From positions 25,001 through 89,000 of the forward strand of contig JACVTC010000161.1 of assembly GCA_016946835.1 (NCBI GenBank): 64,000 bases of DNA, given 5' to 3'. This document shows, one piece after another, positions 8,590 through 47,595 of the stretch. The notes beneath the pieces were generated by a model, which worked only from the letters and a program-made list of their open reading frames with translations, searched no databases and was not told the origin of the DNA. Both the position numbers and the translations under genes were made by a program. Each line of letters begins with the position of its first letter. Positions within the stretch are counted from its first letter, which is position 1. The stretch is from Neocallimastix lanati (nom. inval.). Lineage: Eukaryota > Neocallimastigomycota > Neocallimastigomycetes > Neocallimastigales > Neocallimastigaceae.

Positions 8590-8604
8590 AAATAACAAAT
8601 ATAA

Positions 8605-8675
8605 GCGTTAATAGTATAGAGGTAGAATATTTGCCTTCCAAGCAAATGGCCCGGGTTCGATTCCCGGTTAACGCA
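8605..8675 (+). tRNA. tRNA-Gly (anticodon UCC), copy 1
   Basis: 71 nt, cloverleaf by eye: acceptor GCGTTAA/TTAACGC, anticodon stem TTTGC/GCAAA around loop CTTCCAA (anticodon TCC), T arm with GGTTCGATTCC (also the Pol III B box), discriminator A. No encoded CCA. A T5 run directly after the gene is a Pol III terminator. Identical to the other three copies. Reads GGA glycine codons. An LTR ends 15 nt upstream. Confidence 0.97.
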
Positions 8676-9468
8676 TTTTTATTTTAATAATAAAAAAATT
8701 CGAGTAACTTAAGCGGATGCAAACGCCATCATACTACCAATCTGTAAGATTGCCTTTTTTTTTTTTTTTTTCACAGCCACAATTATCATAAACTTTAAAC
8801 TTTATTTATTTATTTATTCATTTTATTGAATATGTGAATATTTTTTGTTTTTTAAAAAACACTGAATTAATAAAAAAAAATAAATAATATTTGTCCAATT
8901 AGAACATAATAATACTTTAAATAGTAATGTGAAATAAAAGTAAAATTCAAATAAGATGAAAAAGAAATTCAGAAAAAAGTTCATATACAACGAACCTCAC
9001 TTCCATATTACAAAATTTCTGTTTAAAGTAATTATTTGTACCTATTTCTATATATAAGATATAAATATAAATATTCATATATATTTAGCAGCTTACTTTA
9101 TATTTATTATATGCTACAATTAAAATTAATTTTTTTTTTTTTTTATTCAATATAAGACATTATATACTGATATTACATATTCTCAGATTGTAAAGGGAAA
9201 TATTATCTTAAATAATACTATAATCAAGAAGAAATAAATAAATAAATATATATATTATATGAAAAAATCCATATCTTTAAATAATAATGTTATGTTTTAT
9301 AACATAAAAAGATTAATATTATATAAATCTTTAAAAAAAAAAATAATAATAATAATAATAATTAAAAAAATATTTTAATAAAACTTTATGCAATTTTTTA
9401 TTACTTATTATTCATTCATTTTTTTTTTTTTTTTTTTTTTTTTTTTTTTGATTTGTTATATATATTTT
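8676..9468. other. 3' flank of tRNA copy 1, no gene seen
   Basis: AT-rich with poly-T runs (about 8755-8771, 9129-9144, 9419-9449). A short mixed-composition patch at 8700-8750 is not recognisable. Confidence 0.6.
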
Positions 9469-9552
9469 TCTCTTTATACTTTCTCTTCTTCCATAAAGTA
9501 GTTCAAATTTTCTCTTTATACTTTCTCTTCTTCCATAAAGTAGTTCAAAACT
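9469..9552. repeat. 42-bp tandem duplication inside a pol relic
   Basis: TCTCTTTATACTTTCTCTTC.. to ..AAAGTAGTTCAAA is repeated with a 42-bp period. On the minus strand it encodes the SFELLYGRRE-like motif that follows integrase in element I relatives, so a piece of coding sequence was duplicated after decay. Confidence 0.85.
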
Positions 9553-10620
9553 TGAAAACCCTGTTTTCTCATTTTTCGTAGTCCCTAATACCCATATCCA
9601 TAAAGCGTCTGGAAGAATATCATCCCATTCAGTTTCGTTTTGTGAAGGAAGCTTGAGAAGTTTACTTACTTCTTTATTTCTATTCTCTACTTGGCCGTTA
9701 GTATCTGGGATGGTGGGGAGTCAAAGGTGAAACATAAACATTATAAATATCCAAAAATCCTTTTGTTTGACTTGATATAAATTGAAGTCCATTATCATTA
9801 ATAAATAATTTTGGGATTCCATGTTGATTAAAGACATTAATCAAAATATACAATTACATCTGAAGATTCAATATTACGAAGGATTTTAATTTCAACCCAT
9901 TAAGTAAAATAGTCAACTAACACATTGATATAGCAATTTCCTTTAGAAGTTTGGTAGAGAGGTCCAACAATATCAAAACCCCCTCTAACAAATGGTGCTT
10001 CAGCAGGGATTTGTACTGCTTTCTTCTTTAGGATATGGTATAATCTAGAACGAAATAATTGACATTTTGTGACAAGTTTTTTTAACTATTAATTTTACAT
10101 CATTTAACATATTTTGCCTATAAAAGTCTCATTTTTAAACGATTACATATCCTGTATATTCCTTCATGATCAATGTTATTTGCTTTTTTGAAGTAAATCA
10201 GCTTTAGTATCTTTATCTTCAATATACTTTCTCATATTATATCTGTCTACAAAATAGTTTATATTATCTACTTTTATAATTTTTAAGTTAATATAATTAT
10301 CCATGAATGAAATGACAGTTAAACTTACATAATTATTAGGATTGTTTTCTATAACAGGAATTTTTGATAATGCATCCGCTATAACATTTCTCTTTCCTTC
10401 TTCATAATCATATTTAACTACTATTTTTTGCATATTGAAAGAATCCAATTTGATAAAGTGCTTATAATGATCAATCGATGCTTCCTTCTTGAACAGTCCA
10501 ACTATAGGTTTATGATCAGTAAATAACTCTGTTTCAAAGGAATTTCCGGAAATAAAAGATTTAAATTTCATAACATAATAAAAGGCCGCAGCTCCATAAA
10601 GTTTTTATAACAAGATAATT
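9469..10620 (-). pseudogene. Ty3-type RNase H / integrase relic
   Basis: Minus-strand reading from 10620: LYGAAAFYYVMKFKSF, ELFTDHKPIVGLFKK, EEGKRNVIADALSK (RNase H C-terminal half, open at 10571-10176). After frameshifts come integrase pieces FDIVGPLYQTSKGN..VLVDYFT, INDNGLQFIS, TNGQVENRNKEVSKLLKL and EWDDILPDALW. Order and motifs match element I (RNase H then DDE integrase). The two catalytic Asp contexts and the Glu context are recognisable, but stops and frame changes separate them. No LTRs were recognised around it. It sits between the two tail-to-tail tRNA-Gly genes (8605 and 12260). Dead fragment of an element I-like retrotransposon. Confidence 0.88.
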
Positions 10621-11704
10621 CTTCTCTTTTTTCTTTATTGATCTTCTTTTATTTCCTTTTATTTCTTTTCATTTCTTTTAATTTCTTTTATTATTTATAA
10701 AGTAAAATAGTAATTTTTTTGAAAAGTATAAATAGATGTAAATATTTTTTTTTATTCAATTATTCATTGTTATAAAATTTTATAATTAATATATAATATT
10801 AATTTTTCATATTTCTTAGATTAGTATTTATATTTTATTTTTATTTATTAATTATATTTAAAATTTTATTATTACTTTAATTTATAATTAAATCATAATA
10901 AATAAGTAAAAATTTATAATAAAACGAATTTGTTTTGATAAAACATTTTTATATTTTTGTATTATTTAAGCATTTTTATCTTTATTTTGATACAATATAT
11001 TATCACTTTTAACTCTATTATTAGATTAAGGTAATAGCCCCTTTGTATTTCTTATTAGAATAATAAAAGAATAAAATTTGAAAATAAAAATTAAATTAAA
11101 ACAGAAAAAAAATAAAAAATATAAAAAAATATAAAAAATGAAATAAAAAAAAAAAAAATGAAAAAGTAAAAAGAGAGAAAATAAATGAAAAATAATAAAA
11201 AAAAAAGTTTGATTAAAATACAATTTAAATATTAATGGGAATAAAGTATAGAAAGAAATGTATATATAATAGATAATAAAAAATATGTATAATAAATAAT
11301 GAAAATGTAATATAAAATTAAAATATTTTTTAGTTATTATTATTATTATTATTATTATTATTATTATTATTATTATTATTATTATTATTATTATTATTAT
11401 TATTATTATTATTATTATTATTATTATTATTATTATTATTATTATTATTATTATTATTATTATTATTATTATTATTATTATTATTATTATTATTATTATT
11501 ATTATTATTATTATTATTATTATTATTATTATTATTATTATTATTATTATTATTATTATTATTATTATTATTATTATTATTATTATTATTATTATTATTA
11601 TTATTATTATTATTATTATTATTATTATTATATTTATTTTACTTTTATTCTTATTCATATATATATATATAATATATTTATATTTAGTATTATTAATTGT
11701 ATGA
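10621..11704. other. AT-rich spacer with microsatellite, no gene seen
   Basis: Poly-A/T-rich sequence carrying the (TTA)n array; nothing else recognisable. Confidence 0.7.
11334..11630. repeat. (TTA)n microsatellite, about 99 units
   Basis: An almost perfect 297-bp trinucleotide array. Read on the minus strand it gives a poly-Ile ORF (11026-11658) that is an artefact. Confidence 0.98.
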
Positions 11705-45618: not shown

Positions 45619-45623
45619 CACTT

Positions 45624-46469
45624 TGTAAAGAATTAATTAAAAATATTTAATTATATTAATAATTAATTCTTTCTACAATTAATAATAAAAAATATTATTA
45701 ATTGAGATAAAATTAAAAAATATAATATAAAAATTTGAAAACGAGAATTTAAAAACTTAGAGTTTATTATAAGATTATAATAAACAACACTAAAAGTAGG
45801 TTGAGTATTTTAGAAATTATTTTATTATAAAAAATTTTTTATTAAAAGTAATTTTAAAATATTTGTGTTAATTATTATGATTTCTTATAATAATAACTCT
45901 TGATTATTTTTAGAAGAATCAAGAGTCCTATTTATATTAATTTGATTTCTAATCTTGGAAAATTATCTCTATCTAGAAAAAGATTAGAAGAAAAAACTAG
46001 ATAGATCTCGATTGGTGTTTAATTACATCAATCTTTAGTTAATAAGAAAACCCGAATAAGGGAGAAAACTTATTAACTAATTATATATTAATTTTATTAA
46101 TATTTAATCACAAGTATAATTAAATAATCAATTCTTTTAATTTTCTTAATTAAAAGTCCAAGAAATAATATAATTTAATTATTTCTTGATTAAATAAAAT
46201 TATCATTTTAATACAATTTAATTTTTCTTAATTAAATAGAATTTATCATTATTTTAATACAATAATACATTATTATAATTTAATATATAAATTATTGATA
46301 ATTTAATTTATTGTAAATAAATTTTAAAACAATAACATTAATTAATAATTACTATGTGACATAATTAATAAAATTATTTATAAAATATTATAAAATAATA
46401 AACTTTAAAAATATTAATTTTTTAATAAAGAATAATAATTATTTTGAAAAATAATTATAATTCTTTACA
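45624..46469 (-). mobile_element. solo LTR (TGTAAAG subfamily) F1
   Basis: Near-identical to 50675-51529. Hairpins ATCTATCTAG/CTAGATAGAT and GATTGGTGT/ACATCAATC. Flanks CACTT and CAATT, one mismatch. Confidence 0.9.
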
Positions 46470-46475
46470 CAATTA

Positions 46476-47580
46476 TGTTCGGTTATATAAGAAATAAAAG
46501 GATTACAATAAATACACTTTATTTTGTTATTTTTTTTTTATTTATGTGTTTATTTGTTTATTTGTTTATTTGTTTATTTTTTTTTTAACTAATAAGTAAA
46601 TTAATTATTACAATTATTTATTAAACAAAATAATTTTTTTTTTATAACTAAATAAAACTATTTATTAAATTATGCACTAAACTAAATAAATTACTTAATA
46701 ATATTAACTAAACTATTATAACTAAAAATTTAATTAAATAATTAACTATCAAAACTAAACTATTTAAAACTAAACAAACTAAACTATTTTAAAAATAAAC
46801 TATTTAAAACTAATCTTTTTTTTAAGACTAAACTATTTAAAACTAAACTAAAAAAAATATTCTTATTATTAATATTATTTTTATTATTTTAATTTTGTTA
46901 GTAGTCTTATTATAATCTAAGGAAAGATTCTGCTTTTTTTTTATCGAGTAGACATAGGTCTATTTATATTTTTTCAATTTTATTTTTAATTGTAAAGCCT
47001 CAATAAAAAAAAGAGTTTGAATTAAAAATAGGATTTTTGAAATTGATTTTAATAATTATTCAATATATTTTATATTTATTAAGAGTATAATTGAATAAAT
47101 ATGATAAAATCTTTTTCGAAAACGTTAGAAAGTCATTACTAATAATTTTAAATTTTATTAGTGAAAAAAAAAATTTTTTTTTTTTTTTTTTTTTTTTTTT
47201 TTTTTTTTTTTTTTTTTTTTCAATTGGTAATAATAATTAAAATATATAATATATTTATTACTAATTTATTCTAAAAAAAAAAATTTTTTTTTTTTTTTAT
47301 ATATATATATATATATTAATAATTAACCAATATTTTTATTTTAATTATTTAGAATTTTCTAAAAATTTATAGAATTTATTTAAGGGATTCTTAATATAGA
47401 AATCTTTTAGAAACTTTTAGAAAAATAATAATATTTACTATCAATATTTTAGAATTTCCATGAAGGAAGAATATAGGAAAGTTTAGTTTAATAAGAAATC
47501 AATAATAATTATAATTGGAATATTTGTAATATATTATGAAAATTATTACAATTTAATAATTATTATTTTGTTCTTTTTCA
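46476..47580 (-). mobile_element. LTR K (4-bp-duplication type) adjoining tRNA-Gly copy 4
   Basis: Minus-sense TGAAAAAGAAC to ..TATAACCGAACA, 1105 bp, 4-bp duplication ATTA (46472-46475, 47581-47584). A minus-strand TATAAATAGACC lies at about 46960. It contains a T47 run (47174-47220). No second copy in the window, so boundaries rest on TG/CA ends, the duplication and the 15-nt spacing to the tRNA. Confidence 0.65.
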
Positions 47581-47595
47581 ATTAAAAAGTGTGTA

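What the first reader, a model, noticed from the sequence alone, without database searches (positions are those of the whole stretch)
8590..47595. All four tRNA-Gly(UCC) genes carry an LTR end 15-17 nt upstream
Spacing from LTR end to mature tRNA 5' end is 15 nt (8590-8604), 15 nt (12261-12275), 17 nt (33785-33801) and 15 nt (47581-47595). Three different LTR families are involved. Yeast Ty3 integrates at this distance through Pol III factors. This points to a Ty3-like Pol III-targeting mechanism in several lineages of this organism, aimed at the transcription start rather than at a sequence motif, since the four upstream sequences are mostly different.
Basis: partly seen in the sequence, partly recalled or inferred. 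Interest (0 to 1): 0.9.

Follow-up and report, generated by a model that had tools for sequence, protein, structure and literature searches.

The report
Retrotransposons stacked at tRNA gene starts
In this gut-fungus genome several kinds of mobile element insert, again and again, at one spot about 15 letters in front of tRNA genes, a known trick of yeast and slime-mould elements that here has left nearly every single-standing tRNA gene examined with an insertion, often a stack of them.

Summary
All four tRNA-Gly(UCC) genes have an LTR terminus 15, 15, 17 and 15 nt upstream, each checked against other copies of that LTR. It is genome-wide: one LTR end (740 copies) lies before a tRNA B-box at 43 sites; the 41 that I could measure are all 12-16 nt from the tRNA, in about 12 tRNA types, with none in the next 30-nt window. 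In held sequence 34 of 34 lone tRNA genes have an LTR-type end 12-18 nt upstream; second genes of tandem pairs (13) have none. At eight genes LTRs form trains with 3-6 nt separators that match as target duplications, so the same spot was reused. Two Ty3/gypsy clades take part, with 4-bp and 5-bp duplications. One family is orientation-biased: 43 of 740 U3 ends against 4 of 727 U5 ends face tRNAs. No clear motif marks the site. This is Ty3/DGLT-A-like Pol III targeting in an anaerobic gut fungus, probably Neocallimastix lanati. Four U6 genes show no LTR, and no Pol III factor was tested.

The parts
8605..8675 (+). tRNA-Gly(UCC), site 1
   Evidence: ARAGORN, Rfam RF00005
8539..8589 (+). terminal 51 nt of the LTR at site 1 (terminal CA decayed to TA); 15 nt (8590-8604) to the tRNA
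   Evidence: 50/51 identity to an LTR end at window 42131
12190..12260 (-). tRNA-Gly(UCC), site 2
12276..13137 (+). 5' LTR of element A (TGATAAG...CTTAACA); its U3 end is 15 nt from the tRNA 5' end
14449..15441 (+). element A gag-like ORF, stop to stop (330 aa; CCHC-like motif seen by eye, no Pfam match)
15405..19439 (+). element A pol ORF, stop to stop (1344 aa: RT, RNase H, integrase; no chromodomain found)
   Evidence: Pfam; best solved relative Ty3 7q5b
19458..20321 (+). 3' LTR of element A; no substitution against the 5' LTR (indels only); 4-bp duplication TCTC at 12272-12275 and 20322-20325
20328..27673 (-). element B, second in the train at site 2 (LTRs 20328-21327 and 26674-27673, 2 substitutions); 5-bp duplication CTCTT; pol split over two overlapping ORFs near 21.9 kb
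27680..27689 (+). start of a third LTR (TGTAAGAAAT) in the train at site 2, after a 6-nt separator
33714..33784 (-). tRNA-Gly(UCC), site 3
33802..34141 (-). innermost LTR of the site-3 train (340 nt), 17 nt from the tRNA; flanking 5-mers match 4 of 5
34142..39072 (-). outer LTRs of the site-3 train; separators caaga, aga, caagaa, aga, caagta, aga (tRNA orientation)
41007..45618 (+). outer LTRs of the site-4 train; separators, outer to inner: tttt, atta, att, caatta, cactt, cactt
45624..47580 (+). innermost LTR-bearing stretch at site 4 (1957 nt, probably composite), ending 15 nt before the tRNA; its two flanking 5-mers do not match
   Evidence: (38 of 39 non-self copies end here)
47596..47666 (+). 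tRNA-Gly(UCC), site 4
52988..60580 (+). element C (clade 2; LTR begins TGTAACAG; no target duplication found); an LTR end like its own lies 11 nt before another tRNA (L060)

Best explanation
Several Ty3/gypsy LTR retrotransposon lineages of this anaerobic gut fungus integrate at one fixed position, 12-18 nt upstream of the mature 5' end of tRNA transcription units. Most likely the integrase complex docks on the Pol III initiation machinery (TFIIIB and/or TFIIIC) and strand transfer happens next to it. Shown: the fixed spacing at many tRNA types, no clear site motif, target duplications of 4 bp in one clade and 5 bp in the other, reuse of the same bases by later insertions, two clades, and an orientation bias in family A. 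Inferred: that Pol III factors are the dock; that each new insertion lands between tRNA and older LTRs and pushes them outward; that solo LTRs arise by LTR-LTR recombination; and that the tRNA stays active because its promoter is internal.
For: Genome-wide LTR-A U3 end: 43 tRNA sites of 740 copies, 41 measurable at 12(1), 13(3), 14(12), 15(15), 16(10) nt, 37 distinct flanks (tRNA starts set by me); 0 in the adjoining window. LTR-B end: 11 sites at 14-22 nt, mean 17.0. LTR-A U5 end: 4 sites, 14-16 nt (counted by eye). Lone tRNAs in held DNA: 34 of 34 at 12-18 nt (corrected), 27 of 34 with a similarity breakpoint between 12 and 18 nt. Pairs: the LTR stands before the pair. Trains: 28 units in 8 trains that I chose: 14 with flanking 5-mers matching at >=4/5 against a shuffled mean of 2.4; 12 of 13 TGTAA-type units so, and 6 of 15 others with exact 4-bp duplications. 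Unfiltered, over all 56 non-mirrored junction rows: 12 at >=4/5 (shuffled mean 3.4, reached 0 of 20,000 times), 6 exact 5-bp, all TGTAA-type, and 6 exact 4-bp, none TGTAA-type. Closest solved relative of the A and B pols is Ty3 7q5b.
Against: U6 genes: 4 above and 2 below the Rfam cut-off, none with an LTR end seen in the 150 nt upstream (by eye). Only 43 of 740 LTR-A U3 ends meet the strict tRNA pattern; the rest (internal LTRs, outer train members, other tRNAs or non-targeted copies) were not sorted. Ty3 docks through its CTD and chromodomain (PMC8632968, passages), and no chromodomain was found here. Element E lies inside another LTR, 67 nt from a tRNA, so not every family obeys. One B-family site is 22 nt away. 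Of 10 lone tRNAs in a second small sample one is ambiguous and one shows no LTR end. Downstream of tRNAs breakpoints also pile up at the tRNA end itself (10 of 35 genes at 0 nt), though not at a spaced position.
Confidence: 0.86

Rival explanations
1. Segmental duplication: a tRNA gene with an LTR already beside it was copied many times, so the common spacing is inherited from one event.
For: tRNA-Gly copies share downstream flanks, and some loci share one LTR (L001, L013, L017, L028, by eye).
Against: Copies with similar downstream flanks carry different LTRs (C137 cluster); 37 of 41 LTR-A sites have distinct flanks, in about 12 tRNA types; target duplications differ between loci.
Confidence: 0.05
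2. Survivorship: elements insert broadly and only copies in front of tRNA genes persist.
For: Insertions into genes would be lost (general knowledge); most LTR-A ends were not shown to be at tRNAs.
Against: Selection alone does not easily give a 5-nt-wide peak with nothing in the next 30 nt, nor reuse of the same bases in trains.
Confidence: 0.03
3. The integrase recognises a DNA motif or an existing LTR end, so insertions accumulate beside earlier ones.
For: Separators are short and repeat within one train.
Against: 37 distinct flanks show no strong base preference beyond A/T-richness and a mild rise of G (up to 0.30) at -2 and -3; separators differ between trains; the spacing to the tRNA is kept.
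Confidence: 0.05

Closest known systems
Ty3 of Saccharomyces cerevisiae
   Same: Ty3/gypsy element; inserts 1-4 bp upstream of the Pol III start, about 15 bp before the mature tRNA (PMC5006619, passages); 5-bp duplication; best solved relative of the A and B pols.
   Different: Here several lineages from two clades share the site, one with 4-bp duplications; no chromodomain found; family A is strongly orientation-biased; U6 genes show no LTR.
DGLT-A of Dictyostelium
   Same: Ty3/gypsy without chromodomain, about 15 bp upstream of tRNA genes (13-33 bp; PMC5006619, passages).
   Different: DGLT-A inserts in either orientation (PMC5911963, passages) and has twenty insertions in D. discoideum; here one LTR end alone has 740 copies, and multi-LTR trains are seen.
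Tj1 of Schizosaccharomyces japonicus
   Same: Ty3/gypsy, 1-10 bp upstream of predicted tRNA starts, 5-bp duplication, all tRNA inserts in the table passage listed as forward (PMC4600332, passages).
   Different: Different host phylum; Tj1 also hit 5S genes, which was not tested here.
Beta/Tca8, Ylt1, Tyl3, Tyl6
   Same: Other fungal Ty3/gypsy elements close upstream of tRNA genes (table in PMC5911963, passages).
   Different: Ascomycete yeasts; no early-diverging fungus is in the part of that table that I saw.

Membership tests
Ty3/gypsy (Metaviridae) LTR retrotransposon | LTRs, gag, pol in the order RT-RNase H-integrase | tested here: met
   elements A, B; closest solved chain Ty3; the gag of A has no Pfam match
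Pol III-gene-targeting elements (Ty3, DGLT-A, Tj1 kind) | insertion in a narrow window just upstream of tRNA genes | tested here: met
Pol III-gene-targeting elements (Ty3, DGLT-A, Tj1 kind) | use of other Pol III genes such as U6 or 5S (reported for some members) | tested here: inconclusive
   0 of 4 U6 genes above cut-off, few genes and only sequence read by eye; 5S not tested
Ty3 proper | chromodomain-bearing integrase C-terminus contacting Brf1/TBP | tested here: not met
   no PF00385; the contact itself is not testable here
Ty3 proper | 5-bp target-site duplication | tested here: inconclusive
   clade 2 (TGTAA-type) yes: 12 of 13 chosen units at >=4/5; clade 1 mostly 4 bp
DGLT-A | descent from the dictyostelid lineage | not tested
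   no dictyostelid sequences compared
Pol III-gene-targeting elements (Ty3, DGLT-A, Tj1 kind) | dependence on TFIIIB/TFIIIC | not testable with these tools
   needs binding or integration assays

The most novel reading that the evidence does not exclude
Two distinct Ty3/gypsy clades in an early-diverging fungus, both apparently without Ty3's chromodomain dock and with different cut staggers (4 and 5 bp), have come to use the same few bases before nearly every lone tRNA unit. At least one is locked in orientation, so tRNA starts act as time-ordered recorders in which each new element pushes the older ones outward.
Probability: 0.5. Interest if true: 0.66.

Novelty: new member of a known kind. 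Interest (0 to 1): 0.55.

Why it matters
It extends Ty3-like safe-site targeting, known from ascomycete yeasts and slime moulds, to (probably) Neocallimastigomycota, in a large repeat-rich genome rather than a compact one. Many natural insertions with readable duplications let one test whether unrelated integrases found the same dock, why U6 seems spared, and why one family faces one way. Anaerobic gut fungi lack robust genetic engineering tools (PMC8561657, passage), so an integrase with a target window of a few nt could be of practical use. No paper listed in searches reports this for the phylum; the last three listings were capped (15, 10 and 10 shown), and the open-licence library misses most subscription journals.

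Tried and rejected
Site 1 looked false at first because 29 of 39 genome copies stop at 8538-8543; a longer look found the LTR end at 8589. BLAST breakpoints inside LTRs (beyond 40 nt) reflect LTR variation and were not used. A short-motif junction histogram is noisy and was followed by the train analysis. For that I used 28 of the 69 junction rows, chosen by eye; left out were 14 rows that belong to the facing train or are its 8-nt gap, and 27 that looked LTR-internal, solitary or far from the rest. A test over all 56 non-mirrored rows gives the same picture more weakly. My distance table holds two typing slips: entry 27 should be 13, not 15, and entry 33 should be 12, not 13; the corrected tally is 12(1), 13(6), 14(8), 15(9), 16(4), 17(3), 18(3), n 34. 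Five of these 34 termini end in TA or CG instead of CA, and four rest on the terminal motif alone. One tRNA-Cys (C70:9094-9168) was counted as a second gene because a tRNA-Ser remnant seems to precede it; ARAGORN calls none there. Age order of train members rests on one pair (0 against 2 substitutions) and is not significant. The first LTR search script timed out. A pattern for the LTR end GTGGTCACGTATCA did not complete, so that family has no genome-wide count.
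Full report
WHAT THE WINDOW IS. The window is G000:C70:25001-89000 of a 199-Mb, 762-contig genome; GC of the held part of C70 is 19% without its 15,000 N. The host is most likely Neocallimastix lanati: contig C745 is 872,873 bases, the same length as the longest contig of a protein record named N. lanati (P0104), and the published genome is 200.97 Mb (PMC8561657, passage; it gives 970 contigs against 762 here). This is an inference from one length match, ankyrin hits and genome size. Taxonomy: Neocallimastigomycota.

THE FOUR SITES. 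ARAGORN and Rfam agree on four identical tRNA-Gly(UCC) genes. Site 2 is next to a full-length Ty3/gypsy element A: LTRs 12276-13137 and 19458-20321 without a substitution, gag-like and pol ORFs open. Site 3 ends at 33802 (29 of 38 second match pieces end there, the rest 1-10 nt beyond) and site 4 at 47580 (38 of 39 non-self strong matches). Site 1 ends at 8589 in a decayed terminus, 50/51 identical to an LTR end elsewhere in the window; 29 of 39 genome copies of that stretch stop 50 nt earlier. The spacings 15, 15, 17 and 15 stand. The four termini are four different sequences.

GENOME-WIDE TESTS. The U3 end of LTR A (AGTACATTCTTATCA) occurs 740 times. Followed at 50-80 nt by a B-box (GGTTCRANTCC; recalled consensus) it occurs 43 times, reversed-pattern control 0. 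Two of the 43 I could not place on a tRNA start; the other 41 lie 12-16 nt before the tRNA, at 15 start sequences that make about 12 types (starts set by me by eye). The pattern leaves roughly 0-30 nt open, but only to about 20 nt for the 8 Ser/Leu-like sites. With the gap moved to 81-111 nt there are 0. The B-family end gives 11 sites at 14-22 nt, mean 17.0 against 14.7 for A (one of the 11 is on a tRNA type left unplaced). The U5 end of A occurs 727 times (reversed control 7) and faces a tRNA 4 times: 43/740 against 4/727, Fisher p about 2e-9. So family A turns its U3 end to the tRNA.

tRNA-CENTRED TEST. Of 47 tRNA genes in 302 kb of held DNA (C70:1-159000, C137:1-100000 and 14 further loci; a sample chosen through tRNA-Gly, so not random), 34 are first or alone and 13 are second in a tandem pair, 8-12 nt behind another tRNA or, once, a remnant. 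All 34 have an LTR-type terminus 12-18 nt upstream (two values corrected); 27 of 34 have a similarity breakpoint between 12 and 18 nt within the sample, three more are supported, and four rest on the terminal motif. None of the 13 second genes has one (by eye). Of the 30 tRNA-Gly loci fetched, 20 are lone (20 with an LTR-type end) and 10 are second genes, whose partner has the end in 10 of 10. A further 20 of 63 tRNA hits from the Rfam search were read over 100 nt upstream, by eye: 10 are second genes; of the other 10, eight show an LTR-like end at 11-16 nt, one (L066) is ambiguous (13 or 21 nt) and one (L070) shows none. Upstream breakpoints peak at 13-18 nt; downstream they pile up at the tRNA's own end (10 of 35 genes at 0 nt) and are otherwise spread.

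TRAINS. Upstream of eight genes LTRs follow one another with separators of 3-6 nt. In tRNA orientation, from the tRNA outward, the site-3 train reads caaga, aga, caagaa, aga, caagta, aga; the site-4 train reads cactt, cactt, caatta, att, atta, tttt; they meet head-on between the two tRNAs. In 28 units that I chose (of 69 listed rows), 14 have flanking 5-mers matching at 4 or 5 of 5 (8 exact) against a shuffled mean of 2.4 (maximum 9 in 20,000); LTRs beginning TGTAA show 5-bp duplications (12 of 13 at >=4/5), the others exact 4-bp duplications in 6 of 15 and a >=4/5 5-bp match in 2. Without choosing, over all 56 non-mirrored rows, chance junctions included: 12 at >=4/5 (shuffled mean 3.4, never reached in 20,000), 6 exact 5-bp (0.7, never reached), all in 25 TGTAA-type rows, and 6 exact 4-bp (0.9, reached 3 times), all in the 31 others. 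At site 2 the history can be read as three insertions at 18, 17 and 15 nt (from; inference). In the partial lists at least four LTR-A ends face another LTR-A end with exactly 4 nt between (C3, C19, C46 twice; by eye, first 100 of 740 and of 727).

LINEAGES. RT-RNase H identities separate A, A2, D (52-99% among themselves) from B, I, C, E (55-78%, leaving out one comparison over 4 columns); between the groups 35-44%. A and A2 stand directly at tRNAs; D, B and I are train members; a C-like LTR ends 11 nt before a tRNA (L060). E sits inside another LTR 67 nt from a tRNA and does not fit. A and D have 4-bp, B and I 5-bp duplications. No chromodomain was found in the pols of A, B and C.

MECHANISM. 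Fixed spacing, lack of a clear motif, many tRNA types, placement before the pair rather than before each gene, and Ty3-like pols point to an integrase complex guided by the assembled Pol III factors. The same facts do not say which factor. U6, which needs TFIIIB (general knowledge), has no LTR in 4 of 4 genes above cut-off; either TFIIIC or tRNA-specific assembly is needed, or U6 insertions are lethal, or four genes are too few. The absence of LTRs inside tRNA pairs could also be selection, since an insertion there would cut the first tRNA.

AGAINST KNOWN SYSTEMS. Papers on Ty3 (PMC8632968, PMC5911963), DGLT-A (PMC5006619) and Tj1 (PMC4600332) were seen as passages, not whole. The behaviour is of their kind. 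What I did not see described in those passages is the saturation, the multi-clade trains, the 4-bp class and the strong facing bias together; the listings of searches (several capped) show nothing of this sort for Neocallimastigomycota, in an open-licence library only.

Noticed in passing
L071-L074 (C761, C745, C28, C109): Four U6 genes seem to share upstream CCAAT-like and TATA-like blocks (by eye) and have no LTR end near their start.
   Followed up: partly
G000:C555:329729-333608: Eight listed tRNA hits recur every 530-553 nt in a regular array on C555.
   Followed up: no
window 8405-8538: A separate repeat with 504 first-look candidates seems to end at 8538 inside the site-1 LTR; 29 of 39 non-self copies stop at 8538-8543.
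   Followed up: partly
G000:C70:102223-109220: Element E (LTR TGTTAAAATTAAG...TTTCAACA) lies inside a TGTAA-type LTR with a 5-bp duplication AACTA, 67 nt from the tRNA; a similar LTR end appears upstream of other tRNA-Gly genes (by eye).
   Followed up: no
window 34975-36110: A tandem array with a 54-bp period lies within the site-3 LTR train.
   Followed up: no
G000:C70:141669-158998: A cluster of at least six similar ankyrin-repeat ORFs; the one searched is closest to Neocallimastix proteins.
   Followed up: partly
G000 genome-wide: The tRNA model has 9278 first-look candidates, which would be far more than a usual fungal tRNA set; 63 were scored and the rest not verified.
   Followed up: no
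window 13138-13170: A possible primer binding site TGGTGGAGATATCGGGG lies a few nt after the 5' LTR of element A; the matching tRNA was not looked for.
   Followed up: no
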